From Arthrobacter woluwensis (GTDB lineage Bacteria; Actinomycetota; Actinomycetes; Actinomycetales; Micrococcaceae), in contig NZ_JAUSXR010000001.1 of the NCBI RefSeq assembly GCF_030816155.1, positions 1,178,001 through 1,242,000 of the forward strand: a stretch of 64,000 nucleotides of DNA, read 5' to 3'. The translations under genes were made by a program, and so were the position numbers. Under the pieces are notes generated by a model, which was not told the DNA's origin, searched no databases, and saw only the letters and a program-made list of their open reading frames with translations. Of this stretch, positions 642 to 17,800 are shown one piece after another (position 1 is the first letter of the stretch; each line of letters begins with the position of its first letter).

Positions 642-716
<75 letters not shown>

Positions 717-719
717 AAG

Positions 720-755
720 AAAGTCGCGGAAACTCACGGGTTTCCGCGACTTTTT
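720..755 (+). terminator. Rho-independent terminator after tRNA-Pro
   Basis: AAAGTCGCGGAAAC pairs with GTTTCCGCGACTTT around a short loop and ends in a run of five T. It lies just inside the element, so the element supplies its own terminator for the reconstituted tRNA. The likely original terminator is at 14323-14357 beyond attR. Confidence 0.85.
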
Positions 756-814
756 CGTTGGTGAGATTTGATCCAGTCATCACAAACCCATCACTTTGAC
801 ACTCCGTACCGCAC

Positions 815-840
815 GTTGAGCGAGCGCAGCGAGTCGAAAC
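815..840. repeat. Dispersed intergenic repeat-like motif
   Basis: The stretch beginning GTTGAGCGAGCGCAGCGAG and ending TCGAAAC resembles a short repeat that is common between genes in Microbacteriaceae genomes. Only one copy is visible in this window, so calling it a repeat is recall and not observation. If correct it hints at where the element came from. Confidence 0.3.
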
Positions 841-897
841 CAAGGTCCTCCCCGGTTGCTGTCGGTTCGTGCGGCGACGGCTCCGCACCTGTTCGGC

Positions 898-1143
898 ATG
901 GACACCGAACGCATCACAGAGAACCCGTGGGGCCTGGAGCCCCTGCTCGACGTTGGCGAGTTCGCCGCTTACCTGGGCGTTCCCGTCTCGACGGTCTACG
1001 ACTGGCGCACCCGCGGCCTCGGTCCGCGCGCGTATCGCTTCGGCAAGCATCTGAAGTTCGCGCTCTCGGACGGTGCGGATCTGGATCGAGCAGCAGCGCG
1101 CCCCCGAGCCGCCAGCGTCGGCGGACGGGCGGTGAGCCGATGA
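898..1143 (+). CDS. Excisionase-like helix-turn-helix protein, C-terminus frameshifted
   Basis: This is an 81-residue MerR/excisionase-type winged helix. LLDVGEFAAYLGVPVSTVYD followed by WRTRGLGP and GKHLKFALSD is the usual HTH_17 pattern of element-encoded recombination directionality factors. After SD (codon ending at 1071) the frame appears to slip by one base. The +1 frame reads VRIWIEQQRAPEPPASADGR and then a stop at 1133-1135, which is the tail expected for the family, while the open frame gives an unrelated arginine-rich tail. One extra G at about 1072 explains this. The open frame overlaps the integrase start by four bases (ATGA), whereas the repaired gene would end 4 bases before it. 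There is no clear ribosome-binding site at 898. Confidence 0.6.
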   Translation: MDTERITENPWGLEPLLDVGEFAAYLGVPVSTVYDWRTRGLGPRAYRFGKHLKFALSDGADLDRAAARPRAASVGGRAVSR

Positions 1144-2321
1144 GCCGGCAGCGGTTGAGCATCGGTACCTTCGGGGAGATCGGCCACCTCGTGAGCCCCA
1201 GCGGACGGGTCGTCGCGCGTGCCCGCTACCGCGACTGGGATGGCAAGACGCGGCTTGTTCAGTCGACTGGGGATACACGGAAGTCCGCGGAGCGGGCGTT
1301 GAAGGCGAAGTTCGCCGACCGGAGCCTCTTCCAGCCGTCGTCCTCGGCGCTCACGCCGGATAGCCCGTTCCCGGACCTGGTCGCGTACTGGCTCGAGGAT
1401 CTTGAGCTCGAAGACCAACTGTCGAAGCGAACCCTGCAGCTGTATGAGCGGAACATGCAGACGCTCGTCCTGCCGGTCTTCGGGAACCTGACCTTGCGGG
1501 AGATCGGCGTCACCCTTTGCGATCACTTCCTCAAGCAGCTCGCGAAGCAGAGCTACAACCGCGCCAAGCAGGCCCGCGTGGTCCTCCGACTCGCACTCGG
1601 TCTCGCCGTCAGACATGAGGTGCTGCCGCGGAACCCGATGGACCACGTCTCGCGACTGCACCGGCCGGCGTGCACTCCGAACGCGTTGACACCGGCGGAG
1701 GTGAACGCGATCCGCACGGCGATCGCGTACTGGGAGGGCGGACGCTCGATCTCCGGTCCCAAGCCCGACGGACAGCTCGGCACGATCATCGAGGTCATGC
1801 TCGGCACCTCCGCCCGCATCGGCGAAGTCCTCGCCATCCGCCGCCGCGACATCGACGTCACCAGCCCGACCCCTTCCATCCGGATCACCGGCACGGTCGT
1901 CAGTCACCGGGGTGAGCCGACCAAGCGGCAGGATCGCCCGAAGACAGCGAAGTCCAGGCGTACGGTAGCGATCCCCTCGTTCACCGCTGAAGCGGTACGA
2001 CGCAGGCTGACCCGGTTGGAGGATACGTCACTAGACGCGTTGTTGTTCTGCAGCCGTGAGGGAACGCCGCTGACGACGAACAACGTGCGCCGTCAGCTCC
2101 GGCACGTGCTCGACCTTGCCGGCATCACCGGGATCACGCCGCACATGTTCCGCCGCACGGTCGCGACCGCGATCAACGAGCAGGGCGGCGTCGAACTCGC
2201 TGCCGAGTTGCTCGGGCACACGGACCCGAAGATCACGATCCAGCACTACATTCGCCGCAGCGAGATGGTGAACCCCGCGACCGCCGAGATGTTGGATCGT
2301 GTCTTCTCAAGGGAAGAATGA
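1140..2321 (+). CDS. Tyrosine site-specific integrase
   Basis: This 393-residue phage-type integrase catalyses recombination between the tRNA-Pro attB and the element att site. The N-terminal ~65 residues form an arm-binding region (GxVVARARYRDWDGKTR). A SAM-like core-binding domain follows at about 75-170, then the catalytic domain. The catalytic residues are visible: R226 in TSARIGEV, H335-x-x-R338 in TPHMFRRT, H360 in LLGHTDP and nucleophile Y370 in IQHYI. The ATG overlaps the stop of the upstream excisionase-like frame, so the two are probably co-transcribed. Length and motif order look intact. Confidence 0.93.
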   Translation: MSRQRLSIGTFGEIGHLVSPSGRVVARARYRDWDGKTRLVQSTGDTRKSAERALKAKFADRSLFQPSSSALTPDSPFPDLVAYWLEDLELEDQLSKRTLQLYERNMQTLVLPVFGNLTLREIGVTLCDHFLKQLAKQSYNRAKQARVVLRLALGLAVRHEVLPRNPMDHVSRLHRPACTPNALTPAEVNAIRTAIAYWEGGRSISGPKPDGQLGTIIEVMLGTSARIGEVLAIRRRDIDVTSPTPSIRITGTVVSHRGEPTKRQDRPKTAKSRRTVAIPSFTAEAVRRRLTRLEDTSLDALLFCSREGTPLTTNNVRRQLRHVLDLAGITGITPHMFRRTVATAINEQGGVELAAELLGHTDPKITIQHYIRRSEMVNPATAEMLDRVFSREE

Positions 2322-2392
2322 GGAATGCTCTCCACCGCGGTACTCAGAGTGGAGAAGGCCATACGGGAGAGTGGCCGGAGGATCGGATGGCA

Positions 2393-2659
2393 TCACGGCT
2401 CGGATTGCTCAGGACTTGCCATGTGAGTGAGCACTGCCTGCAACGCGGCGACGATCTGTTCAGGCGCGAACCCGTCTGTGCTATTGATGCTCTCCCAGAA
2501 CCGGTCGTACGCTTCGGTCGCGAACTTCAGGAAGCTCCAGAGCGCAGGGGCCTCCTGTTCGGCGGTGGTGAGGAACTCCGCCCAGCGATCGCGGTCCTCG
2601 AGGAGGTACGCGACCCCTCGCACCGTGTGGAGCCGAGCCTCTTCGTTGTCGAAACGCAT
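2393..2659 (-). CDS. Small hypothetical protein (88 aa)
   Basis: The ATG at 2659-2657 follows a strong AAGGAG ribosome-binding site. The protein starts MRFDNEEARLHTVRGVAYLL and is acidic, soluble-looking and mainly helical, with no signal peptide or membrane segment. I do not recognise the family. It lies convergent to the integrase inside the element, between the integrase and the recombinase remnant, and could be cargo or an element accessory gene. The strong ribosome-binding site and compositionally sensible protein support a real gene. Confidence 0.65.
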   Translation of the reverse strand: MRFDNEEARLHTVRGVAYLLEDRDRWAEFLTTAEQEAPALWSFLKFATEAYDRFWESINSTDGFAPEQIVAALQAVLTHMASPEQSEP

Positions 2660-2827
2660 GTTGCTTCTCCTTAGATCGTCGGGCGGGTCTTGTTCATGCC
2701 CTTCACGACAGGTGCGCGCCGCCACCCCAAAGCTCTGATGGAAGCGGTGAGGGCGCCACGATCCGCCACTCGGGACGAGTGAGGCTGATGGCTGGCGAGT
2801 GGTGCCAGGTAGCGATAGGCGGGCCAG

Positions 2828-2872
2828 GTTCGCAGTGAGAAGGTCAGGGGTTCGAATCCCCTTAGGTCCGCC
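2828..2872 (+). pseudogene. tRNA 3'-end fragment (possible old attachment site)
   Basis: AGGGG-TTCGAAT-CCCCT (2846-2862) is a perfect T-arm. It is preceded by a plausible variable loop (AAGGTC) and part of an anticodon 3' stem, and followed by TAGGTCCGCC like an acceptor strand. No matching 5' half lies upstream, so it is a fragment. tRNA identity could not be determined. It directly abuts the point where the serine recombinase remnant loses homology, which suggests a decayed attachment site of a second, older element. Confidence 0.5.
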
Positions 2873-2904
2873 TGGCGCGCGTTGTGCGAAACGACCGGTG
2901 ATCG

Positions 2905-3327
2905 TGTGCCGTTCGGAGTCATGTCGATGCCCTTGGTACTTGATATGAGTCGGGCGCCCGCAGCATGAACGGCCTGGGTGATTGCGATGTCGTCGGCACG
3001 TGGTCGGGCCAGCCGGTCGAGCTTGTGGACGATGACGTAGTCGACGGGATGCTCCTGCAGATAGGTGAGCATCCGTTGGAGCTCTGGGCGGTTCGTGCTT
3101 CGGCCCGATTGACCACGATCAACGAACTCAGCGGAGATGAGAGCGCCCAGTCCGTGCGCTTGCTTTCTGTTCGCCTCGTGCTGGGCCGGGATAGAGAAAC
3201 CCTCTCGCTCGCCTCCACGGTCAGCTTGGAGAACCGTCGAGACACGGATATACGAGACGGCTGAAAGAGGCGAGGACGCTGCGCGGATCCAAGTTAAAAC
3301 GGGAGAAGGTTTGAGAAGATGAGCCAT
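2905..3327 (-). pseudogene. Serine recombinase remnant (N-terminal catalytic domain only)
   Basis: The minus strand encodes a resolvase/invertase catalytic domain: SYIRVST with the nucleophilic serine, GFSIPAQ, FVDRGQSGRSTNRPELQRML, VDYVIVHKLDRLARP and a degenerate version of the usual ExxDTPxG ending (KGIDMTPNGT). Similarity stops near 2905, and the frame then runs through the antisense of a tRNA fragment. Large serine recombinases need several hundred further residues for DNA binding, so this copy cannot be functional. The start is uncertain (ATG at 3327 has no clear ribosome-binding site). It is a relic of an earlier mobile element. Confidence 0.75.
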
Positions 3328-3369
3328 TCTGTCAACGCTGACAGCAGGGGCTACTGAGGACATCCCGTC

Positions 3370-6300
3370 TTGAACTCGTCCGCGGCGGAGGAAGATTGGC
3401 GCCGCGAGCACCTCCAACGTCGATCTCTGTACCTGTTGACGCACCCAGTTGTGTCACTGGCCGCCGATACTATCAAATACATGACACGTCGAAGCTCCGA
3501 GCGCGCGGTAGCCGAAGCGCGCCGACGAGGTGCCGCGCAGGAGCGCCGCGGTCAGAAACGGGAGACCTTATCTCCTGCCAGCCCAGCGTCAACTAGCGTG
3601 CCAAGCGACTCACAGGCTGCATTGTGGGTCGCTTCCCGAGCCGGTGCGCGTGCCGGGCGCGGCTTTCGTTTTCAGGATCTGGTCGCGACGCTCGTCGTAT
3701 TGCGTCTGTGGAGCGAAGGCGACGCGACCGCGTTAGTGACGCCGGAAGGGTACGACGACATTTCGGTGCAGTCGTCCAGCGGGGCGTTCTTCATCCAGGT
3801 CAAGTCGCGACGCGATAGTGCGGGCGATTTCGCGGCGACGGACCTACGCAAGGACTTGCGTTCCGTAGCAAAGGCTTGGGTGAAGCGTAGGGACGCCGGA
3901 CTCCCAGCCACGACGACCCTCTTGCTCGAGCGCCCGGTCGCTCGAATCCCCGTACCCGAGTGGGGGAGTGAGGGTGCACAACCTGGCTCGAGTCCCCCGA
4001 GTGAATTGGCTAAGGAACTTGACGCTCTATCGTTCGAAAACGATCAGGATTCGGTTGCCTTTGCGGCCTCCGCCTCAGTTGTAGTCTGTCCTGACCCGCA
4101 CGCGCGGGCGATCAGCATCATTACCGGAACTCGCGATTTTCCGGATGGTCTTGCGGAGATCATTGTGGCTGCCGTCTGCACCCAAGTGGGTCAGGCTAGC
4201 GACGCGAACGCGGACCCGGATATCGCGAAGCGCGCGACCGTGGAAATCGCAGGCATCGATGTCCTCATAGACCAGGTCCTTGCGACCGTCGACCTCGAAT
4301 TGCTCGATGAGGCAAGGTCGTTGGGGATCTGCGAGGCAATCGACTGGAGATCATCTGCTGATGGTTCGGACCTACGGCAGGGCGTGCACGTGGGAGCTTC
4401 TCACGTCGTTGCCGGGTTGCTCGTGCCTCGTGTTGAACTCACACAGCAGGTGGTCGAAGTCGCGGCGACCCGCCGGTTGGCAGTCATCGCCGGACCGAGC
4501 GGCAGCGGCAAGAGCGCACTCGCGTACGCAGCCGCGTACGAAACCCGGAGGCTATATCGCTGGCAGCATGTCCACTCGTTGACACCAACGGGGCGCACAG
4601 GGCGCGATGCTGTCGCACTTCTTTCCGCGCGCATTGAGGCTTTGCGGCCGAGTGCGTATGCGCCTGTGGGGGTCCTCATCGACGACGCTGGGCGCCACGA
4701 CTCAGATCTCCTCGATCGACTACTGAGACGGCTCGCGGACCTGTCGAACGTGATCGCCATTGTTTCGATTCGAGAGGAAGACCGCTTCCCTGTCCCGCTG
4801 TTGTCGGCCATCGCCACGATAACGCCGATGCTTGACGACAGCTTTGCAGAGCAGCTTTGGCGCGACTACCGGGCGGACAATCTCACTGAATGGGCCGGAT
4901 GGCGGGAACCAGCCGAGCGAGCAGGCGGCCTTCTACTGGAGTACGTCACGCTGCTCACCGAGGGTGTGAATCTCGCCACCGTCGTCAGCGCGCAAGTCGC
5001 CGCACGCGAATCAGACCCGAGTCGACATCTTGAGCTTGAGATCCTCCGGCTCGCATCGTGTGCCAACCAATACGGCGTCGCCGTCCCTGCCCATGCGATC
5101 CAATCCGCTCTGGATGCCGATCACGGCGCATTCGTCGCTGCCAGCCGCCGCCTCATAGACGAGCACCTTATCGTTGAGGACTCGGGCAACCTCATGCGGC
5201 CGCTGCACGAAATCCGATCCGCAGCACTCGCCCGGGCAGCTCACCCCTTTGGGCAGCAGGACACTCTCCAGCGCATTGTCCCTCTAGTGACCAGCGCCGA
5301 GCTCGCGCGATTTCTCCGACGAGCACTCGAGTCCGGGGCTGACCAAGCCGTGATGATCCAGGCCGCAACCGAGCGCATCACACGCGATCGCACTCTCCAG
5401 ACGCTCGTCGCAGTCGCATCCGCTTTCCGTGCTGATGGACTTCGAAGGCGGGCCGACGACTGGAAGCGCATCCTCGATGAATGTGACGTTGATGCTGGCA
5501 AGGCTGTAAATGCGTTTACGATGTCTCGCACCAAGCCGCGCCCCGACACAGAACATCTCTTCAAGCCCGAGATTGTGGCAGCCATTGAGAGGCTCCGCAG
5601 CGTCCCGACCGATCCAGATCTGCAACCCTTGTGGCGAAAGATCGACGCGACGCTGGTCGAAGACCTCACGACCGCTGCGGTCCTCGATGACGAGGCACCC
5701 CAACTCCTGTTGCAGGCCATCACTGTACTTCGCGGTTTTGACGTCACAGCTCTGGAGGCCACCGCGGGTGCAATCGGTGCACGCCTGACGGGATGGCCGC
5801 TGCACGACTCGGCCGACATGACGGAGGCGTTACGTCGCGCGGCACCTGAGCTTGCGGAACACGCTGTCATCACAGCCGGCGGCGAGCAGCTCCTCCTGCG
5901 CAGGATCGCGACAGAAACACCGTGGCTAGCGTCGCTGGAACGCGTAGCCGACGGGGTGGATGGCAGATGGATCTTCATCGACGAGGAGCTACAGCCGAAC
6001 CAGAACGACGCGGTCGTTGAGGTCTGCCGACTGGCCCTCGCTCTTGCGCCGACAGCGTTGATCGCCCGGGTGGGTGCGGTGGATGCCCTCGGGCGCTTGG
6101 CCAAGCTCGGCGACTACCCGCTCGCTGACAAAGCGATTCCCCGAGAGAATTTGCCCCATGCCCTCGAAGTCTCCGATAACAGAGCCCAGGCTCGAGCCTT
6201 GTCGCGAAAGTACGGCGCGGGCACGTTGACGTCCAAGCTTGCGGCCGAGGCGATAGCACTCGGGGCGCTCCTCGATCTGCTCCCAGAGATCGCGATCGCC

Positions 6301-7599
6301 CACCTAGGCAATCGAACTGTGCCTCGAACGATCGTTCGCCGGCTCGAATCGGTCACCGCGCTGCTTTCCGAGATGGACTCTCCGGCAGACGAGGGCTACA
6401 CGGACGAAGTGCCCGGCGCTCTCGGTGACTATCCCGTCGAGAGCGACGCCGCCACCGTCGTGCGAATGCTGCTCCAGCAAGTCATTCCAAGTCTTGCACG
6501 GGCAGATATAGCCGAGCGGCGCCCCATCCTGACTGTCGGAACGCTCGACAGTCTCATCCAGAAGGTCGGTGCACTGATCGAACTCGACCGATACCGCTAC
6601 CTCCCCGACCCGCCCGATTGCGCTCAGCTACTCGACTCTCTCCGCCAATTGCGAATAATCGCGTCCGCCAGTGCAGGATCGGACTCATCAGTCCGCCTAT
6701 CCATGCGGGCCGCTGCTGGGCGACACACGGGAACCGCTCGGATCGCCGCAGCAGCTACCGTTGCGACCGAGCGCTCTTCCGCAGCCTTGCAGAAAGAGGC
6801 TGATCGAATGCAACTTGCGCTCGCAGACGCGGGGTACGCGGTCGCCGTAGTGCCGAGCCTCTCCGATCACACGATGATGAGTTGGCCGCCCGGAGACCTA
6901 GCGATTATCGTGGAAGGAGAGTGCCTCCTCGCCCATCTAATTGCTCTCGCATCTCTCGCGGATGCTGCGAGAACTGCTGTCGAACATCCAGACCGGCGTA
7001 TATGGATTGGACTGCGCTCAGCTAACGGCTACTTGTCTGCCTCGATCTTCCAGGTTGCGCATCACGGGGTGATCCCACTTGGCGATCGTGGAGCGCCGTC
7101 CGCATTCGCAGGCTCGATCGCTGCGACCCCAATTTCTGATCCCTATGCGGCTTACCTCAAGCAAGCTCGTCGTCTCTCATCGATCGCAGCCGTCATCGCG
7201 ATCCGCGGGAGCACTCTGATTCCCGACGTGGAAGGACGGGTGCTTGACGAATCCTGGGACCGTCTCGTCGGCCTCAAAGCGCAGATCGATGAACTCACCT
7301 CCGCTCACGCCGGGACCGAGTACGTGTCCGCGCTCAGCAACATCTTGACGGTCATCGGCGCAGCGATCACTGATGACCTGTCGGCTGCAATTGGCCTAGC
7401 GGAGAAGGGGCAATCTGGATGGGATGAGATCGCGAGCCTGCAGAGTCCGATGCTGCTTGATACGGAACAGGCGGCCATATCGGGCACTGACGCTGCGATT
7501 GTCTATGGTACGGCTGTTGTCATCGCGGACATCGAGGACGATTTTGTGGGTGCGGATGCCCGCGTTGCACACATGCAGGAACATGAGGCGAGTTCCTAA
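3370..7599 (+). CDS. PD-(D/E)XK nuclease-STAND NTPase (Avs/Cap4-like), candidate defence protein
   Basis: This is a very large protein of 1409 residues. At about 85-190 there is a restriction-endonuclease-like domain: RGFRFQDLV, D129-D130 in GYDDISVQ, and Q143-V-K145 in FFIQVKSR. This resembles DUF4297/Cap4-type DNases. A P-loop follows at about 370-385 (GPSGSGKS, residues 375-382) with a Walker B-like strand VGVLIDDA (about 433-440). The remaining ~900 residues are helical and repeat-like, as in STAND sensors. Such proteins recognise a phage product, oligomerise and unleash the nuclease (known for Avs proteins; inferred here). The TTG start at 3370 has GAGGA 9 bases upstream; ATG at 3481 is the alternative. 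No partner gene is adjacent on the same strand. Confidence 0.8.
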   Translation: MNSSAAEEDWRREHLQRRSLYLLTHPVVSLAADTIKYMTRRSSERAVAEARRRGAAQERRGQKRETLSPASPASTSVPSDSQAALWVASRAGARAGRGFRFQDLVATLVVLRLWSEGDATALVTPEGYDDISVQSSSGAFFIQVKSRRDSAGDFAATDLRKDLRSVAKAWVKRRDAGLPATTTLLLERPVARIPVPEWGSEGAQPGSSPPSELAKELDALSFENDQDSVAFAASASVVVCPDPHARAISIITGTRDFPDGLAEIIVAAVCTQVGQASDANADPDIAKRATVEIAGIDVLIDQVLATVDLELLDEARSLGICEAIDWRSSADGSDLRQGVHVGASHVVAGLLVPRVELTQQVVEVAATRRLAVIAGPSGSGKSALAYAAAYETRRLYRWQHVHSLTPTGRTGRDAVALLSARIEALRPSAYAPVGVLIDDAGRHDSDLLDRLLRRLADLSNVIAIVSIREEDRFPVPLLSAIATITPMLDDSFAEQLWRDYRADNLTEWAGWREPAERAGGLLLEYVTLLTEGVNLATVVSAQVAARESDPSRHLELEILRLASCANQYGVAVPAHAIQSALDADHGAFVAASRRLIDEHLIVEDSGNLMRPLHEIRSAALARAAHPFGQQDTLQRIVPLVTSAELARFLRRALESGADQAVMIQAATERITRDRTLQTLVAVASAFRADGLRRRADDWKRILDECDVDAGKAVNAFTMSRTKPRPDTEHLFKPEIVAAIERLRSVPTDPDLQPLWRKIDATLVEDLTTAAVLDDEAPQLLLQAITVLRGFDVTALEATAGAIGARLTGWPLHDSADMTEALRRAAPELAEHAVITAGGEQLLLRRIATETPWLASLERVADGVDGRWIFIDEELQPNQNDAVVEVCRLALALAPTALIARVGAVDALGRLAKLGDYPLADKAIPRENLPHALEVSDNRAQARALSRKYGAGTLTSKLAAEAIALGALLDLLPEIAIAHLGNRTVPRTIVRRLESVTALLSEMDSPADEGYTDEVPGALGDYPVESDAATVVRMLLQQVIPSLARADIAERRPILTVGTLDSLIQKVGALIELDRYRYLPDPPDCAQLLDSLRQLRIIASASAGSDSSVRLSMRAAAGRHTGTARIAAAATVATERSSAALQKEADRMQLALADAGYAVAVVPSLSDHTMMSWPPGDLAIIVEGECLLAHLIALASLADAARTAVEHPDRRIWIGLRSANGYLSASIFQVAHHGVIPLGDRGAPSAFAGSIAATPISDPYAAYLKQARRLSSIAAVIAIRGSTLIPDVEGRVLDESWDRLVGLKAQIDELTSAHAGTEYVSALSNILTVIGAAITDDLSAAIGLAEKGQSGWDEIASLQSPMLLDTEQAAISGTDAAIVYGTAVVIADIEDDFVGADARVAHMQEHEASS

Positions 7600-7797
7600 G
7601 TCGGTAGGTCGTCATTTATGGAATGGCTGGCAGATCCTCGGTGCAGGGTTTCTTGACGTGCCGTCAGAGACTACCGGAATCATGCAAACCGGGCATATCG
7701 TGACGTGCTCTGCTCGCGTCCGCCATACCGAGACGCGACATCGCCCCGACCCTAACGGGCACGACACGTCGCGCGCATCCGCCTCACCGGCGCATCG

Positions 7798-9609
7798 TTA
7801 CAACGACGCAAGCTCCGCAAGCAGCTTCGCCACGGATCGCGGCCAATCGACCAACCCGGCGATCGAATCACGAAGAACGATCGCCTGAGCGCGCGCCACG
7901 TCCGGGGCATCGAGGACACGTTGGATCGCGTCAACCCACTCGTCCACCGCAAACCCGGACCGCGTATTGGCCGTCGATGCGATCGAGGACGGGCTCGTGT
8001 CGATAGACGAGTCACGAATGAACTCCGCAAGGCCCGACTCCGCACTAATGATGACCGGGACACCGCTCGCGATCGCTTCATACGCGGCCAGACCGAAGCC
8101 TTCATGCCGTGAAGGCATCAGCAGTACTCGCGCTTGCGCGAGATCCTGCATGATGTCCTCCTCCGTCTCGGAGAACGGACGCAGGTGGTACGGCACGCGT
8201 CCTTCCATAATTAGGTCCAGACGCTCCTTGACCTCCCTGGCCGCCGCGTCGGGCACACCTCGAATGATGAGGACGGGACGATGCGACGCCTTCGAGGGCC
8301 ACTTGTCGACGACTCTAAGCATCGCTTCCGCAGCGATATCGATGCCCTTCGAGCGAAAGTCTTCCGCGCGTCCCACGAGCAACACATGGTTGCGTACGGG
8401 GGCGTGAGTTTTGCTGACATCAAAAGTGTCACGCAAGCCCGGCATCAAACCGATCACAGGGGTCGTGGGCCCGCGTCCGATGAGATCGTCACGGATACTT
8501 GCTGCGAGCAGCGGTCCCACGCCGACTACGAGATGTGCCGACCGCGCGAGTTCCTGCTCCAACCGCCGACGGGCCGCGGAATCCGACATACGCGAAGGCC
8601 CGCCGGGCACTTCCTTCGCCGACTCCAGTTGTTCAGCGTCCGTATGGACGAAATGCACACGACGTGCCTCTGGGAAGAACTCTTGCTGTTGAGCAGCCGC
8701 ATAGGGACCGAGAAGACGCCCGTGTCCGACGATCACGTCAGGGACCCACGATTGATCCGCGAAGATGGGACGAAGAAGCAATGCCTCACGATCGGTCAAA
8801 CCTGGCACTCGGGCCGGCGTCACGAGTGCAACATTGGCATCCGATGCAGCCTTGATATCTTCCGCGGACGCGTCCGCAACCATGACCGCCGCATCAATAC
8901 CCGTCGCGGCAAGAGCGATCGCCAACTCGCGATTCACCGTGGAGATGCCGCCCCGTCCCGAACGCCACTCATCACACACAAGCAAGAACCGGTCAAGTCG
9001 GCGCGGCGGCACATTCGCTGCGTCGGGGGCCGGAAGCGGGAGACCTCTGGTCAGCAGGCTTAGCGCCTCTTGCGTAGAACGCGGATCCTCCGAAACCGAG
9101 AGATCACCACCCGGCGCAGCGGCGACGAACTGCCATGTCATCTCCGCGTCCGCTGTGCCAACCAGCACCGAGTCGAATCCGACGCCGTCATCGCCTCGAA
9201 CAAGCCGCGCAGCGAAATCGGATGTAGTAACACCGCCCCGTCGACCGGCAGGCTCGTCAGCAGGATCTCCGTAGAACAGGATCACAGCCGCGATGCTCGC
9301 CTCGTCACGGAACGATCGGCGCAACTGCACCGACGTCGCCAGCATTTCCGACGCGCGATTTCGGAAGTTCTTCAGGAAGTACCGGCGATTGAAGATCTTC
9401 AGCTCTATAGCGAGAGGCGGAGCATCGCCTTGCGTCACGAGAATATCCGCACCGGAATCCCAGCCGCGCCGATTCTGCTGACCGCCCACTAGCTCCGCAA
9501 AATAGTTCTCGATTGCGAGATAGTTGCCGGCGGCCCGAGGATCTGCACGTGGACCCTGCAACAGCGACACCAAATGCTGTTCGACTGACTCCTCCATGGC
9601 GACCAGCAT
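7798..9609 (-). CDS. Nuclease-like (PD-(D/E)XK) domain fused to GT4 glycosyltransferase
   Basis: The protein has 603 residues in two parts. Residues ~1-130 look like a PD-(D/E)XK fold: D55 in SGADILV, then E69-L-K71 in LAIELKIF, after an N-terminal helix. Residues ~205-600 are a GT-B glycosyltransferase of family 4. GGISTVNRELAIAL is the acceptor-side loop, the second Rossmann half begins near VLLVGRAEDFRSKGID, and the E-x7-E donor motif is EGFGLAAYE followed by AIASGVPVI. GT4 enzymes transfer sugars from nucleotide-sugars. A nuclease-like fusion partner is not one I recognise. It is convergent with the nuclease-STAND gene, and the upstream SIR2 gene has the same orientation. The start may be ATG 9609 or 9597; neither has a clear ribosome-binding site. 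Confidence 0.75.
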   Translation of the reverse strand: MLVAMEESVEQHLVSLLQGPRADPRAAGNYLAIENYFAELVGGQQNRRGWDSGADILVTQGDAPPLAIELKIFNRRYFLKNFRNRASEMLATSVQLRRSFRDEASIAAVILFYGDPADEPAGRRGGVTTSDFAARLVRGDDGVGFDSVLVGTADAEMTWQFVAAAPGGDLSVSEDPRSTQEALSLLTRGLPLPAPDAANVPPRRLDRFLLVCDEWRSGRGGISTVNRELAIALAATGIDAAVMVADASAEDIKAASDANVALVTPARVPGLTDREALLLRPIFADQSWVPDVIVGHGRLLGPYAAAQQQEFFPEARRVHFVHTDAEQLESAKEVPGGPSRMSDSAARRRLEQELARSAHLVVGVGPLLAASIRDDLIGRGPTTPVIGLMPGLRDTFDVSKTHAPVRNHVLLVGRAEDFRSKGIDIAAEAMLRVVDKWPSKASHRPVLIIRGVPDAAAREVKERLDLIMEGRVPYHLRPFSETEEDIMQDLAQARVLLMPSRHEGFGLAAYEAIASGVPVIISAESGLAEFIRDSSIDTSPSSIASTANTRSGFAVDEWVDAIQRVLDAPDVARAQAIVLRDSIAGLVDWPRSVAKLLAELASL

Positions 9610-9696
9610 AGACGGCTCGCGAACGACGCCGGCCGCCGCAACCGTGAACGCAGCGTGTGTTGCGGCGTTCTGCAGCGACTGTTGGCACCATCAGCG

Positions 9697-10117
9697 TATG
9701 GGCTTCTACTTCGTGTGCCTTGGCCGGCGCAGCGGCCGTACCGCCTGCACGTTGAAGGCGCAGCAGGCGCATCTGACCGAGCAGGCCGTCCAGAGACTGA
9801 TCAACAGATCAGTCTCACCTCGCAGGAACGGCAGAGCGTAGAGGAACAGCTCCTCGCTGAATCTAAGGCGACCGTGCGGGAAGCCGATACTGGACGCGCG
9901 GAGTCGCTGTCGACGCAGTTGCCCCCAGGACCTCAACAAGTCTTGGAAGCAAAACGACATGTACGACATCGATGCGCTCGCCACTGCCGTTCCATATTGT
10001 GACATCGTCTTCGCGGATGCCGAGGCCCGCGATGATGTGATCCGCAGGCAGATGCAAGTCGCGATAGACACCGTCCGGCCTCGACGGTCGGGGGAACTGA
10101 TCGACGAACTGATCTGA
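9697..10117 (+). pseudogene. Decayed hypothetical gene (C-terminal remnant)
   Basis: The segment ending at 10117 reads NDMYDIDALATAVPYCDIVF and on to a stop. I recall this type of ending from a conserved actinobacterial hypothetical family. Upstream, the matching coding signal jumps between frames (for example DLNKSWKQ continues into a different frame), so the gene carries frameshifts and lacks a credible full-length frame. The 9610-10307 interval contains nothing else that I can support. Confidence 0.45.
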
Positions 10118-10307
10118 TCCGCGCCGATCTGATAACTAGACTGTCGAGTATCCGTAGGCCCACCAGCTCACTACACTCGGGGCCGGCCCGTCGACGCTGG
10201 CGCAGTGAGAGCGGCATACCGGGCGGGAGGGCATCACCCAATCACACTTTCGAGCGGGTGACGATGGTTGCGCCTTGTGGTCGGTGCAGGTCTCATCGCC
10301 GCCGGAC

Positions 10308-13300
10308 TTAAGAACTGATCCAGGAGAGAGCTTCGTGAACGCCGCGTGCAACGGCGAGCTCGGCAAGCGCACGAAGTGACGCGGGGTCGGCGGCAGGCTT
10401 CACCCGCTCAACGAGCTCCTCCAACTCGTACTTCACGTGCCAGTCGATACTTTCCGTCAGGCGCAATCGAGTGGTGGCGATCCTGACCAACAAGTCCGCG
10501 ATCGGCTGCACGACCGGTGCCTCAAGGTGATGGAATCTCGTGCGGTCGCCCATGGCACCGGGGCACGATGCCGTGAGTGTAAGTGCCTCGGCGGTTCCGA
10601 GTTCAAGGGCGAGGTCCCCCCAGGCCGTCTTCTCCGTCGAGGGCTGGACACCTGGAGCAGCGGCTTGGCGCGTCTCGATCGCCTCCTTTAGCCAGGATGA
10701 CCAAAGCGCCTCACGGCCAGCGTCATCGAGCTCACCTACGGTTTCGCTAAGCGCTCGGATGAACTCCGCGAGTTGGCCAGCCCGCTCCGGCGCCGCCAGA
10801 AGATCGATCAAGGAGGGTCGATCCACGGAGGCTGCGGCGGAAAACGTCGCGACGGACGCCATTGTCCTCCAGTATCGGTAGGCCATATGGTCGTCACGGA
10901 TCGAGGCGGCATCCGCGGAGCGAAGAAGGAGTTGCCAGAAGCCCGCGTCCAGGAGATCGGGTGGTGTTCTCGGTTCGTGGAGGAAGCTGAACCACGCGTC
11001 AGGTGCAAACTCAGACGTGCCTGAGTCGAAGAGTGGGAAGACGTGCGCGGCGGTGAACACCGGGTCAGCGGCGAAAAGGAAATGGAGCTTCCCGGTCAGC
11101 ATGCTGGCGGCAGCGGGCTGTGCGGGCGTCGGCGAGTCCAGCATGGATCTCAGCGCGGTGGCTTCGGCCGCAGCCAGTCCCGCCCATCGTTCAGGTGCTG
11201 CCTGCCACCTTGAAGCAATGCGATTCAGCCAATACTGAGCCAAGATGCCAGGCCACGTGTTCAAGTCCCGCATGAGGGAATCGCTCCATCCCCCGGGATC
11301 GAACCGAGGCGCGTTCTTCACCCACAGCTCGGATGCAATCGTGTCGAGCCGTTCCAGCACTGGAGGACCTACTGCACCCTCCGATGGTTTCGAAACTGAC
11401 CTCAGCACCTCACTCACCGCTCGAGTGAGCTCGGGTCTGGCGCTCAGCATTTCTAGCGTGTCGACGAGGTCGTCGATCCGCTCCACGAGGAGCGCGCTTT
11501 GGCTCCATCCATGCAGAATTGCCCCGAGGAGATCATGGTGCTGCGCGACGGGCACGAGCGTGACTTCCGGCAGCAGCTCAAGGCCGATTGCGGGCTGCGC
11601 CGCCGCGGCCTCTCGTATGAGTTTGCAAGTGTCGTCCCACGTTGGTTCGTCGAAGTTTCGTTCCGAATAGTCGAGGTTGAGGAGCGACTGGACGCTGACG
11701 CGTGCCCCGTTCTCACGTACACGCGCGAGAAAGTCGTCGACGGTGTGCGGCATCTTTCCGCCCCACGTGCCCGATATCAAGTAATGATCGAAGTCCGGGT
11801 GGGGACGAATCTCCATCTCTGGCTCTTCGTCCTGGATCTCGGAGATGGCGGCATCCAGTTCCGGCCATGAGGTGACATACCTGCTGAGCCATTCTGCCCG
11901 GTCAAAGATCGCTCTGCGGCGGAATCGTGGTTCGCCCCCCTCCGCCGGGTCATCATGTGGAGGGCCAGCGAGAACTGCTGCGAGCAACTGTTGCCTGGAG
12001 CCAGGGCTCAGGTCAGGCGCGACGACCTGAAGCAGACGGAAGACTTCGTGCTTCGCTTCAGGGTCGTAAAGTAGATCGCCGAACACAGTCGCGCACTTCT
12101 CGTCGCCGTTCAGGTGTGGAGACTCAATGACCAGGTGCAGTCCGAGCCTTCGGAAGAGAGCATGAGGACTCGCGAGCCATCTGGCCGATAAGTCTGCGCA
12201 ATTCGACGTGGTGAGCGCGGCGCTGTCGCGGAGCATGTCGATTACCGTGCCCTCCTCATCGCCGAACCGGTCCTGTTCATGCGGTTCAATTGCGGAGCGG
12301 CGAAAGGACCAAGGATCGAAGGTGCGCTCTGGATCGAACGCACGCAACAGTTCATAAGCATCGGTCAGTGCCTGTTCCGCGATCTGAAGCACCCGGTCAG
12401 CGCTCTCATCCGCTTCCTCCGCGACCTGCTCCCACAACTTCTTCAGGATCTGATCTGAGGTCGCCCACTCAATCTCTGCCGATACGCGACGCGGCTGTGT
12501 CTCGTCCTCGTTGGTTGGGAACCACGGGCGGTCTTCCTTCAGCACGAGGCGGGGTACAAGCGCACGGCGAAGCAACGGGAGCGCATCGACGCCCGATAGC
12601 GGGTTGCCGTAGCCCAGGAACCAGGTCAGGCCTGACTCTGCGGGGTCTGTTCGCAACGCGGCGATCAGAATAGTCATCCAGCGACGCGCATCTTCGGGCG
12701 CCGTCGCTCGCAACGCGCGCGCAGCGCGCGAGATCTCCCACTGGAGCTCCGTCGATACGACCGGTCCGAGCCGGGCGACAGTACTAAGCGCGAGCGCCGA
12801 ACGCTCGGGAACCGCAACGTACTCGTCGACGAACCACCTTGCCAGCACCCGAGACGCCTCGTTCTCGACTCGTCCCGTACTGAAGAGCGTCGTGAATGCC
12901 GGTTGCTCCTCAGCCCATCGGAGCCACTCGTAGCCCGTCGCCGCGGCTACGAAGCCACGTGCGCCCGACGGTGTGTTCAACACATCGGCGAGGTAGTCCG
13001 CTTCCTCCGGTACCGCCGGAGGAGCCCCGGCCGCGAGTTCCTTCGCGCGTGCGTGGTGATCCAACAAGCCCATACTCATCAAGGACGCCCAGGCGTCCAA
13101 GGCCAAGGGAAGTGCCGCGTGCCCGTCGTCGCTTGGATACGCCACCGGAGTGATCCGGAGGTTCTCCCACCGGGCGCTGTTCGGCTCGTCGGTAAGCACG
13201 AACCGCGGCTGCGCACTCGGCGGAAGCCCGCGAGCTAAGTACGTCATGACGACATCGCTGTGGCTGTAGCCGACGAAGAGCACTGTCCAATGCTCGAAGA

Positions 13301-13853
13301 GATCCTGCACGAACCGTCGAGCCCACCCGTCGGTGAGATAGGCCCGCCCGAAGTCGTCGTCCGTGACTACAAGCTCCGACGCTGGACGAGACACGGAGCC
13401 GTGTAGGTGGACCAGCCCCCGAACCTCTCTCCCCACCGGCAGAGCAGGCCCGGAGTATGCTTCGCCGAGACTCAGAGCCGTCTCGGAGGCGGCGGCTTCA
13501 ATATGTAGGTCGTAGTTCGTCGTAACGATCGGCGCACCGGCTGCGCTCGCGAGGCGAGCGAGTGCTCGGTGATTGGCGTTGGGAAGCGACTGCGCACTCC
13601 CGGTGATCGCGCGCACCTGATCCTTGACGAGCGGATGCGCCTGCATCAGCTGGCCCAGGAACCGGTCCGGCGTGAGAGTAGCGTCGTACTCCTCACCGAG
13701 AGTTTGAGCGATTGTGCAAGCCAGGCCGTCGTAGAGCGGGAGGCTAGACGGTGCGTTGATGGATACGCCCGCACCAACGAACAAGACCAGTCGAGCGTTA
13801 CGTGCGGCTGCCAACAGTTCGTTTGGGACGTCGACATCGTTGGTAAGCCTCAC
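10308..13853 (-). CDS. SIR2-domain protein (DSR-like), candidate NAD+-depleting defence protein
   Basis: The protein has 1181 residues. The N-terminal ~200 residues are a SIR2-like NAD-binding domain: FVGAGVS (25-31), TTNYD with N113 and D115, HLHGS with candidate catalytic H151, and VGYSHSD (194-200). The remaining ~950 residues are helical, with many Trp/Leu/Ala-rich segments and no recognisable second enzyme. This is the layout of defence-associated sirtuins (DSR1/DSR2), where the C-terminal region senses phage proteins and SIR2 destroys NAD+ to abort infection. That role is inferred. The start is GTG at 13853. It is the last gene of the element before attR and reads away from it. Confidence 0.8.
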   Translation of the reverse strand: MRLTNDVDVPNELLAAARNARLVLFVGAGVSINAPSSLPLYDGLACTIAQTLGEEYDATLTPDRFLGQLMQAHPLVKDQVRAITGSAQSLPNANHRALARLASAAGAPIVTTNYDLHIEAAASETALSLGEAYSGPALPVGREVRGLVHLHGSVSRPASELVVTDDDFGRAYLTDGWARRFVQDLFEHWTVLFVGYSHSDVVMTYLARGLPPSAQPRFVLTDEPNSARWENLRITPVAYPSDDGHAALPLALDAWASLMSMGLLDHHARAKELAAGAPPAVPEEADYLADVLNTPSGARGFVAAATGYEWLRWAEEQPAFTTLFSTGRVENEASRVLARWFVDEYVAVPERSALALSTVARLGPVVSTELQWEISRAARALRATAPEDARRWMTILIAALRTDPAESGLTWFLGYGNPLSGVDALPLLRRALVPRLVLKEDRPWFPTNEDETQPRRVSAEIEWATSDQILKKLWEQVAEEADESADRVLQIAEQALTDAYELLRAFDPERTFDPWSFRRSAIEPHEQDRFGDEEGTVIDMLRDSAALTTSNCADLSARWLASPHALFRRLGLHLVIESPHLNGDEKCATVFGDLLYDPEAKHEVFRLLQVVAPDLSPGSRQQLLAAVLAGPPHDDPAEGGEPRFRRRAIFDRAEWLSRYVTSWPELDAAISEIQDEEPEMEIRPHPDFDHYLISGTWGGKMPHTVDDFLARVRENGARVSVQSLLNLDYSERNFDEPTWDDTCKLIREAAAAQPAIGLELLPEVTLVPVAQHHDLLGAILHGWSQSALLVERIDDLVDTLEMLSARPELTRAVSEVLRSVSKPSEGAVGPPVLERLDTIASELWVKNAPRFDPGGWSDSLMRDLNTWPGILAQYWLNRIASRWQAAPERWAGLAAAEATALRSMLDSPTPAQPAAASMLTGKLHFLFAADPVFTAAHVFPLFDSGTSEFAPDAWFSFLHEPRTPPDLLDAGFWQLLLRSADAASIRDDHMAYRYWRTMASVATFSAAASVDRPSLIDLLAAPERAGQLAEFIRALSETVGELDDAGREALWSSWLKEAIETRQAAAPGVQPSTEKTAWGDLALELGTAEALTLTASCPGAMGDRTRFHHLEAPVVQPIADLLVRIATTRLRLTESIDWHVKYELEELVERVKPAADPASLRALAELAVARGVHEALSWISS

Positions 13854-14274
13854 CTATAGAATCTCTCACGTCTTGTCCGTTCAGTCATCCTTGACGCTCC
13901 GGGCGCTGGTGCAACCGTCCGTCCCAGCGGGACAGTGGATGGGAGGGCAGGCTTCCGATGTAAACGATCGGATCGGCCCCATCTGGGTGCATGCATTGGT
14001 CCTTGAGCCGCCACGTGGTGTCGGCGAGATGGGTTGAGCCGGTGAGGAGCGCGAAGCGATGAGCATTGCCGTGCCATGATTCGCCTAGAGCCCGTCAGTT
14101 GTTCTTAGCGCGCGCCCGAGACCTGGCTCATCAAGAACCCACCGAAATCACCCGCCGAGGTCCGCAACCGACCGGCTGCACTCGTACCAAGCGAACCGCC
14201 CGGTTCCCTGTAAACACAAGGGATCCGCGAGTTCCCGAGACGATCGGCAGAGACCGGAAATCGACCGGATCCTC
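13854..14274. other. Non-coding right end of the element
   Basis: No frame here has coding character. It presumably holds the SIR2 promoter (minus strand) and the integrase arm sites expected near attR, but I could not identify either by eye. Confidence 0.5.
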
Positions 14275-14309
14275 CAAGGGGTCGCAGGTTCAAATCCTGT
14301 CAGCCCGAC
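14275..14309 (+). repeat. Right attachment site (attR)
   Basis: This is a perfect 35-base copy of 682-716 (tRNA-Pro 3' end), without the 5' part of a tRNA. It marks the right boundary of the integrated element. DNA beyond it would have been directly downstream of tRNA-Pro before insertion. Confidence 0.9.
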
Positions 14310-14322
14310 CGCGAAGTGGCTA

Positions 14323-14357
14323 AGAACCCCGGAATATCGAAGATGTTCCGGGGTTTT
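14323..14357 (+). terminator. Rho-independent terminator, probably the original tRNA-Pro terminator
   Basis: AACCCCGGAA (14325-14334) pairs with TTCCGGGGTT (14346-14355), followed by TTTT. It stands 14 bases after attR, the position expected for the tRNA terminator before the element inserted. Confidence 0.75.
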
Positions 14358-14582
14358 CACGTCCTGGGACGGCATCCATACTTGATGATCTCTAGGCCAG
14401 CCTAGCTCCTTGGCCAGTTCGGACATGTTCGGGTAAAAGTGCCAAACGCCTGCGACGTGAGGTACGGACAATTCCCCCCGCCGCCAGCCTAATCTGTATC
14501 CGAGATCGCAGACGCTCGTCGGAAGCCCGCGCGAATCGTTACCCAAGGTCCGGATCCAGTCGAGTCCGATATGATTCCGCAC

Positions 14583-14954
14583 ATGGAACCAATCGCGGCC
14601 ACCGCAGCTGCCATCGGACTGATCAATGCTGGAGTGACCCCTACTAAGACCACCACAAGCGCGGTCGCTAAAACCGTGCAGCGTCTAAGACTGGCCGGAA
14701 CCTACGATCCACAATGGTTAGTCCTCGACCCTTCTCTAAGTGGTGGGTTGACCAGTTCGGAGATCTCGGATCTGAGCAGTTTTCTTCGATCAGACGAGAT
14801 GAAACCGGTGCTCGCCTTCTCGGCAATTTCAATCATGTACGACCGACAGATCAACCAGCCGGAAATGATCGCCACGGCAAAAGAGCTGATTCGAAACCAA
14901 ATTAGGGCCTGGAGAGTCACTCCAAGGCCAAGTGGGCTAGAAGTCCAGATCTGA
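14583..14954 (+). CDS. Helical N-terminal region of the NACHT protein, separated by an in-frame stop
   Basis: This 123-residue open frame starts MEPIAATAAAIGLINAGVTP and continues with helical segments such as SSEISDLSSFLRSDEMK. It ends at TGA 14952-14954 in the same reading frame as the NACHT gene, and the frame stays open between the two. Actinobacterial NACHT proteins often carry a ~120-residue helical region of this kind before the NTPase, so the two frames look like one gene interrupted by a stop. A TATGAT hexamer at 14570-14575 lies 7 bases before ATG 14583 and would suit a leaderless transcript. An earlier ATG at 14571 overlaps it. Alternatively this is an independent small partner protein. 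Confidence 0.55.
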   Translation: MEPIAATAAAIGLINAGVTPTKTTTSAVAKTVQRLRLAGTYDPQWLVLDPSLSGGLTSSEISDLSSFLRSDEMKPVLAFSAISIMYDRQINQPEMIATAKELIRNQIRAWRVTPRPSGLEVQI

Positions 14955-14962
14955 TCTGGACT
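14942..14962 (+). promoter_or_regulatory. Perfect 9-bp hairpin spanning the TGA stop
   Basis: AGTCCAGAT and ATCTGGACT form a perfect stem with the three-base loop CTG. The TGA stop (14952-14954) sits in the loop and first stem base. No T-run follows, so it is not an obvious terminator. It could influence termination, reinitiation or readthrough into the downstream NACHT frame. This is inference from position only. Confidence 0.5.
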
Positions 14963-14996
14963 CATCTCGAAAAGCTGTATCGAGGTGCAATTTAGC

Positions 14997-17387: not shown

Positions 17388-17800
17388 GATTGTCAGCTTA
17401 CCCGCTTTAGTTTGTGCGCGCGGTCGTGGGCCAACATTTGTGTGGAGTCTGCTTCGTGCGTCGCGATTGAGTTTTCCGCGTGTTGGCTCCTGCGTGGTTT
17501 TTCTGACCTGATTGTGTAGGAGCTTGGTGAATTCGAGCGGGCTATTGAGAGATGCAGTTTGGCTGGTCCTTTGTAGCTTTTTGAGGGGGGGCAACTTCGG
17601 GCAATCCTAGGGATCTATTGTATGAGCCTAGACTCCGGTTGTGCGGCTGATGGTTCAACGTATTAGATGTGCGGAGGCGCAGGCTTCCGGTGGGCGTCCC
17701 TGGCTTTGGTTGGAAGCCTTCCGAGTTTAGCTTGGGTCGAATTCGACAATCATCGACTTTTGGTAACGGGAGATTTCCCATAATCGTCGATCAGTGACTT
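17388..17800. other. A/T-richer non-coding stretch, junction of foreign DNA and backbone
   Basis: No credible gene, tRNA or terminator was found. Composition is like the NACHT gene until about 17.79 kb, where GC-rich backbone coding begins with the Lrp regulator. No third copy of the tRNA-Pro repeat is present, so the right limit of this foreign segment is not marked. Confidence 0.5.

What the first reader, a model, noticed from the sequence alone, without database searches (positions are those of the whole stretch)
7798..9609. PD-(D/E)XK-like domain fused to a GT4 glycosyltransferase in a defence island
An N-terminal region with D55...E69-L-K71 is joined to a complete GT-B family 4 enzyme with an intact E-x7-E motif. 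I know of no described anti-phage system with this pairing. Possible roles include glycosylating phage DNA, protein or a nucleotide signal with the nuclease-like domain as binder or effector, or a self/non-self marking scheme. This is the strongest candidate for something undescribed in the window.
Basis: partly seen in the sequence, partly recalled or inferred. Interest (0 to 1): 0.85.

Follow-up and report, generated by a model that had tools for sequence, protein, structure and literature searches.

The report
Nuclease-fold and sugar-transferase fusion protein
A mobile stretch of bacterial DNA that looks like an antivirus arsenal carries one protein joining a DNA-cutting-enzyme fold to a sugar-transferring enzyme; sugar transferases of this family were already predicted to act in bacterial immunity, and this compact two-part version is a convenient way to test that.

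Summary
On the minus strand, 9609-7798 encodes a 603-aa protein (start probably M5, 9597): a PD-(D/E)XK-fold N-terminal domain (D55, E69, K71) joined to a complete GT-B glycosyltransferase of Pfam PF20706, 'GT4-conflict' (372 bits). It lies in a 13.6-kb integrative element at tRNA-Pro (35-bp att repeats, integrase) with a Cap4-nuclease/STAND-like protein and a SIR2 (Dsr1-like) protein. Relatives with the fusion are patchy and, where named, actinobacterial; 4 of 8 loci examined have type I or III restriction genes within 10 kb. Elsewhere GT4-conflict domains often follow Roc-COR, LRR or NTPase modules.

GT4 as a predicted conflict effector is published (Kaur 2021), so the kind is known; the passages I read do not describe a nuclease-fold fusion. 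New result: the nuclease triad is intact in only 45 of 63 relatives, with about 13 separate losses on one tree, whereas the GT site is intact in 62 of 63. Best reading: a stand-alone immune protein whose constant enzyme is the glycosyltransferase, with the nuclease fold as a nucleic-acid-engaging module that may cut in many lineages but is catalytically dispensable. Sugar, acceptor and defence activity are untested.

The parts
7798..9609 (-). The fusion protein, 603 aa (599 aa if M5, codon 9597-9595, is the start)
   Evidence: ORF; M5 nearly invariant
9010..9609 (-). N-terminal PD-(D/E)XK-fold domain, residues 1-200: helix 27-40 (E34), strand 44-45, strand 56-60 (after D55), strand 63-74 (E69, K71), helix 75-99 (ends R97 R98), strand 105-113, then an extension with G144, D146, W159
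   Evidence: model pLDDT 86, pTM 0.85; fold matches; conservation
7819..8985 (-). GT4-conflict glycosyltransferase domain, residues 209-597: G220 G221, H322, R414, K421, E503-x7-E511
682..716 (+). attL: 35 bp, the 3' end of tRNA-Pro(GGG) (tRNA at 642-716)
   Evidence: tRNA; exact 35-bp repeat
14275..14309 (+). attR: exact 35-bp direct repeat of attL; right end of the element
768..2321 (+). Tyrosine integrase of the element, next to the tRNA
   Evidence: PF00589, 2.5e-22
3370..7599 (+). Neighbour: 1409-aa protein with a Cap4-type dsDNA endonuclease domain and a STAND-like NTPase region
   Evidence: PF14130 7.1e-8, over its cut-off; nSTAND1 6.7e-5, under its cut-off; LmuA 3.9e-8
10308..13853 (-). 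Neighbour: 1181-aa SIR2 protein resembling Dsr1
   Evidence: PF13289 1.7e-18; Dsr1 4.3e-53

Best explanation
A stand-alone, single-gene immune protein carried as cargo on a tRNA-Pro integrative element. Shown here by computation: the domain composition, the predicted fold, an intact and strongly conserved GT active site, the mobile defence-like context and the repeated loss of the nuclease triad among relatives. Inferred: the N-terminal PD-(D/E)XK-fold domain engages invading (or infection-generated) nucleic acid and thereby switches on or aims the protein, perhaps cutting it in the lineages that keep the triad. The GT4 domain is the obligatory catalytic effector and transfers a sugar from a nucleotide-sugar onto an acceptor (phage or host macromolecule, or a small metabolite), which blocks phage growth or stops the infected cell. 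The nuclease fold would thus occupy the place that NTPase, Roc-COR or LRR modules hold in other GT4-conflict proteins.
For: Domain and fold. GT site (G220, H322, R414, K421, E503, E511) intact in 96 of 101 aligned GT4-conflict sequences and in 62 of 63 NTD-bearing ones, the exception being truncated. Nuclease triad intact in 45 of 63; 13 losses by a Dollo count on one midpoint-rooted GT4 tree. NTD residues R97, R98, G144, D146, W159 persist in 15, 15, 18, 14 and 16 of the 18 broken ones. dN/dS against the C. flaccumfaciens copy is 0.31 for the NTD and 0.15 for GT4. DNA homology to that record, within window 3001-15000, is confined to 7823-9611, as if it moved as one gene. Element with att repeats; no match to it beside tRNA-Pro in a same-genus genome. 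Relatives near type I RM (L011, L012, L019), type III RM (L014), patatin (L013). GT4-conflict behind LRR-Roc-COR (2), AAA (1) or TPR (1) regions in 4 of 7 other proteins scanned.
Confidence: 0.42

Rival explanations
1. The nuclease is the effector and the GT4 domain is a sensor or regulator: it binds a phage product (for example a sugar-nucleotide or glycosylated molecule) and releases the nuclease. This follows the usual layout of N-terminal effector and C-terminal sensor.
For: Kaur 2021 notes that GT4 often sits C-terminally, where other STAND proteins carry lectin-fold domains, and that TIR or caspase effectors occur N-terminally on some STAND-GT4 proteins (passage). Triad intact in 45 of 63. 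Fold matches include NucC and Can2, nucleases switched on by cyclic nucleotides (titles mention cAAA and cA4; the activation itself is recalled).
Against: About 13 triad losses while the GT catalytic site stays intact. A pure sensor would not obviously need an invariant E-x7-E, R/K pair and H.
Confidence: 0.22
2. Two independent effectors in one chain (nuclease plus glycosyltransferase), either of which can suffice, so that the nuclease is lost at little cost.
For: Triad intact in 45 of 63 and GT site in 62 of 63; purifying selection on both domains.
Against: The asymmetry: the GT site is practically never lost. No trigger module is then explained.
Confidence: 0.14
3. A restriction-glycosylation system: the GT marks self DNA and the nuclease cuts unmarked DNA, like a one-chain type IIG enzyme with a sugar in place of a methyl group.
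For: Layout nuclease at N-terminus, modifying enzyme at C-terminus; relatives sit near RM genes.
Against: No DNA-specificity domain is recognised by Pfam in the 603 aa; nuclease site broken in 18 of 63 with the GT kept, which a restriction system would hardly tolerate; closest solved GT relatives act on small molecules or glycans.
Confidence: 0.05
4. An ordinary metabolic or envelope glycosyltransferase with a vestigial N-terminal domain, only by chance on an island.
For: GT4 folds like MshA and BshA; several database names are metabolic; the PF20706 cut-off is also passed by other GT4s in 99 of 99 genomes.
Against: 373.6 bits against at most 111 for any other protein in those 99 genomes; patchy occurrence, 1 of 395 genomes drawn from the family; neighbours of 8 fusion loci are led by restriction genes, those of 8 ordinary GT4 loci by glycosyltransferases.
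Confidence: 0.1

Closest known systems
GT4-conflict (Pfam PF20706) domains of STAND, NACHT and Roc-COR conflict proteins (Kaur et al. 2021, eLife, PMC8195603; passages read)
   Same: Same GT domain with the same catalytic residues; conflict-type neighbours; predicted effector.
   Different: No NTPase, GTPase, LRR or TPR match in this chain. A nuclease-fold domain takes their place and the protein is about 600 aa, against 1054-1639 aa for the 12 longest GT4 proteins seen.
PD-(D/E)XK type II restriction enzymes and relatives (PspGI, XhoI family, NucC)
   Same: Order of secondary-structure elements; D...E-x-K motif; fold matches.
   Different: Fused to a GT, below the XhoI family cut-off (16.4 against 25 bits), catalytic residues lost in 18 of 63 relatives.
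MshA, BshA and sucrose-phosphate synthase (solved GT4 enzymes)
   Different: About 15-21% identity; different genomic setting; acceptor unknown.

Membership tests
GT4-conflict (PF20706) | Match over the curated cut-off across the whole profile | tested here: met
   372.1 bits against 26, profile 1-385 of 385. The cut-off alone is weak evidence, as other GT4s pass it too; the next best in 99 genomes scores 111.
GT4-conflict (PF20706) | Conflict or defence genomic context | tested here: met
   Own element. Relatives: against controls 69, 79.
GT4 retaining glycosyltransferase (GT-B) | GT-B fold with E-x7-E, the R/K pair and Gly-rich loop | tested here: met
GT4 retaining glycosyltransferase (GT-B) | Sugar transfer from a nucleotide donor | not testable with these tools
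   needs purified protein
PD-(D/E)XK superfamily | alpha-beta-beta-beta-alpha-beta core with D before one strand and E-x-K on the next | tested here: met
   order of elements; motif; matches with middling scores. Whether the residues come together in space could not be measured: no coordinates are given out.
PD-(D/E)XK superfamily | Metal-dependent nuclease activity | not testable with these tools
   triad intact in this protein; broken in 18 of 63 relatives
XhoI restriction endonuclease (PF04555) | Score over the family cut-off | tested here: not met
   16.4 bits against 25 for residues 1-200; weak matches (E up to 1) in 10 of 59 members
STAND-GT4 conflict protein | P-loop STAND NTPase in the same chain | tested here: not met
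   no NTPase match in the 603-aa protein at E up to 1
Type IIG restriction-modification enzyme | DNA methyltransferase and specificity domain in one chain with the nuclease | tested here: not met
   no methyltransferase match; residues 204-603 are GT-B
Known anti-phage systems in PADLOC-DB 2.0.0 | Significant match of the protein to a model | tested here: not met
   only REase_II at E 0.015 over residues 55-104

The most novel reading that the evidence does not exclude
The nuclease-fold domain loads the GT4 onto nucleic acid and the enzyme glycosylates that nucleic acid (phage DNA or RNA, or host tRNA or rRNA) as the immune act: an antiviral nucleic-acid glycosyltransferase, the reverse of phages that sugar-coat their own DNA to escape restriction.
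Probability: 0.13. Interest if true: 0.88.

Novelty: new variant of a known kind. Interest (0 to 1): 0.56.

Why it matters
GT4-conflict domains were predicted in 2021 to be immune effectors from bacteria to corals, but the nine text searches made here listed no paper that I recognised as testing one. Two of these lists were capped (20 shown of 598 and of 5,890), and apart from two papers read in passages the hits were seen as listings only. The longer GT4 proteins found here are 1054-1639 aa with unknown triggers. This 600-aa two-domain form, apparently moving as a single gene, lets two questions be asked with a handful of point mutants: what does the GT modify, and is the nuclease fold a trigger or a weapon. 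The asymmetric decay (nuclease triad lost about 13 times, GT practically never) gives a concrete prediction.

Tried and rejected
Self/non-self sugar marking was rejected as the main reading because the nuclease site is lost so often while the GT is kept.

A dedicated partner gene: I saw none that recurs across the fusion loci, by eye; no systematic all-against-all was run. Homology to the closest named genome is confined to the gene itself. L017 and L018 share a gene block upstream (513 aa, about 930 aa with a Walker-A-like motif seen by eye, 257 aa), but they are two species of one genus with broken triads, and the block was not found in the other loci I hold.

The NTD with other partners: two searches found it only in this fusion and as a fragment in one C. 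flaccumfaciens record. Both scored only about 8,000 candidates, and one search missed most fusions already known, so this absence is weak.

Phage carriage: no match in 50,697 phage records. The viral-contig scan with the single protein found none; with the alignment it found one relative, matching the GT part only, behind a long region with a P-loop-like motif seen by eye (L111). Plasmids: 9 of 72,556 records, GT part only.

The restriction-gene comparison by tblastn (4 of 8 fusion loci, 0 of 22 other GT4-conflict loci, 0 of 49 ordinary GT4 loci) is circular, since its queries came from the fusion loci. and 78/79 are the fairer control. There, neighbours were ORFs of at least 230 aa picked by my own rough rule: 83 from 8 fusion loci, 100 from the first 8 of 23 eligible control loci (49 held). 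PADLOC: 204 models against 5, many of the 204 being redundant type I RM models. Pfam (25 of 84 and 25 of 112 families shown): restriction families lead the first list, glycosyltransferases the second; a glycosyltransferase hitting one fusion neighbour could be hidden. The first list also holds unrelated metabolic genes (a family 1 glycoside hydrolase, a rhamnosidase and others). The controls come from other phyla.

Rows dropped: 12 of 113 sequences (P0023, P0038, P0060, P0065, P0071, P0073, P0086, P0087, P0088, L018, L039, L040) failed the split rule, leaving 101. Of these, P0065 (apparently the L017 protein) and L018 have degenerate triads; P0023 (apparently a shorter version of L012's) and P0060 look intact by eye. 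In one search, L015 (near-copy of L014) and L026 were also left out; P0070 is poorly alignable and counts among the 18. The 13 losses come from one FastTree tree, midpoint-rooted, with an intact root and no regain assumed. A fold family not listed is not excluded.

Full report
OBSERVATION. The reported ORF is real, on the minus strand: 9609-7798, 603 aa. M5 is nearly invariant among 66 sequences, the query included, so the true start is probably 9597. Residues 209-596 match Pfam PF20706, 'Family 4 Glycosyltransferase in conflict systems', at 372 bits over the whole profile. That family's cut-off is loose: other GT4 enzymes pass it in 99 of 99 genomes searched (the own genome included), but the best of them scores 111 bits against 373.6 here.

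KEY RESULT. Among 63 relatives with an alignable N-terminal domain, D55, E/D69 and K71 are all present in 45 and not all present in 18. On one midpoint-rooted GT4 tree the 18 amount to 13 separate losses if the root was intact and nothing was regained. In the same 63 the GT site is complete in 62. In the 18 broken ones R97, R98, G144, D146 and W159 remain in 15, 15, 18, 14 and 16. So the family keeps the fold and other conserved residues of the domain but not always its presumed cutting site, and practically never gives up the GT. Caveats: the set was collected by similarity dominated by the GT part; 12 of 113 sequences were dropped by the split rule. Against the interrupted C. flaccumfaciens copy (L011), dN/dS is 0.31 for the NTD (185 codons) and 0.15 for GT4 (395 codons).

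CONTEXT. A 35-bp exact repeat of the tRNA-Pro 3' end (682-716) recurs at 14275-14309, with an integrase at 768-2321, bounding a 13.6-kb element. In a same-genus genome (L099) tRNA-Pro is followed by other DNA without any match to 717-14274. The element's other large genes are a Cap4-nuclease/STAND-like protein and a SIR2 protein resembling Dsr1. A NACHT gene lies just outside (14985-17387). The protein is rare: at E up to 1e-45 only the own genome in 395 drawn from its family and 396 from its order, 2 of 396 in the phylum and 8 of 394 in the class, the own genome included; the others match mainly the GT part. These are draws from larger groups.

RELATIVES ELSEWHERE. The genome-contig scan kept 80 of 212 relatives; L011-L019 carry the fusion, or interrupted (L011) or decayed (L017, L018) forms of it; L020-L041 carry the GT4 in longer proteins or nearly alone. 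Of seven of these scanned with Pfam, two are LRR-Roc-COR-GT4, one AAA-GT4, one has TPR matches before the GT4, and three gave only GT families. Of 8 non-duplicate fusion loci, L011, L012 and L019 have type I RM genes within 10 kb (in L012 the HsdR gene ends 135 bp before the GT4 gene), L014 has type III RM, L013 a patatin, a phosphoribosyltransferase-like protein and a weak EAD1 match, L011 also HEPN/RES and a weak CHAT match, L016 a phage integrase. PADLOC models matching at 1e-10: 204 among 83 neighbours, against 5 among 100 neighbours of 8 ordinary GT4 loci. Pfam at 1e-8: the commonest families around the fusion are ResIII (5 members), SWI2_SNF2 and HSDR_N (3 each); around ordinary GT4 they are Glycos_transf_1 and Glyco_trans_1_4 (8 each), then ABC_tran, Glycos_transf_2 and Glyco_transf_4 (5 each) (caveats under Tried and rejected). 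The DNA match to L011 within window 3001-15000 runs only from 7823 to 9611, the gene's extent: the gene appears to travel alone.

LITERATURE. Kaur et al. 2021 (PMC8195603; passages) describe GT4 domains as predicted effectors fused to STAND modules, in AP-GTPase (LRR and COR) proteins, with TIR or caspase domains, in two-gene STAND operons, and expanded in corals; they suggest modification of invader molecules. The passages do not mention a nuclease-fold-GT4 fusion; figures and supplements were not available to me. Kaur et al. 2020 (PMC7159879; passages) mentions glycosyltransferases among effectors. Searches listed no experimental test of such a GT that I recognised; apart from the two papers above, hits were seen as listings only, and the lists were capped.

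CONCLUSION. Ordinary in kind (a predicted GT4 conflict protein), new in architecture as far as I could see, and with an evolutionary asymmetry that points to the glycosyltransferase as the working enzyme and the nuclease fold as a trigger or targeting module. My odds: domain identities about 0.9, a defence role about 0.75, the specific division of labour 0.42.

Noticed in passing
window 682-14309: 13.6-kb integrative element bounded by 35-bp att repeats at tRNA-Pro(GGG), carrying three large defence-like genes; no match to it beside tRNA-Pro in a same-genus genome.
   Followed up: yes
window 3370-7599 (+): 1409-aa protein: Cap4-type nuclease domain, STAND-like NTPase region (sub-threshold matches) and a long C-terminal region without Pfam match.
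   Followed up: partly
window 10308-13853 (-): 1181-aa SIR2 protein resembling Dsr1, best at its N-terminus; about 700 bp without a convincing gene separate it from the fusion gene.
   Followed up: no
window 14985-17387 (+): 800-aa NACHT protein just outside attR, in a stretch (14318-17800) also without a match in the same-genus stretches compared.
   Followed up: no
window 2671-3444 (-): Serine resolvase N-terminal domain in a 257-aa ORF, apparently truncated, inside the element: a second recombinase besides the integrase.
   Followed up: no
L017 3988-9441, L018 4389-9783: Two Paractinoplanes genomes with a decayed nuclease triad share a conserved gene block (513 aa, about 930 aa with a Walker-A-like motif by eye, 257 aa) upstream of the GT4 gene; possibly replacement partners.
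   Followed up: partly
protein P0083: A coral (Acropora) protein of 868 aa with NACHT and GT4-conflict domains is 33% identical to the window's protein over 67% of it, in line with the transfer to animals proposed in PMC8195603.
   Followed up: no
L111: A viral contig encodes a long protein with a P-loop-like motif (by eye) and a GT4-conflict-like end (33% identity), so such proteins may ride on viral or prophage DNA.
   Followed up: no
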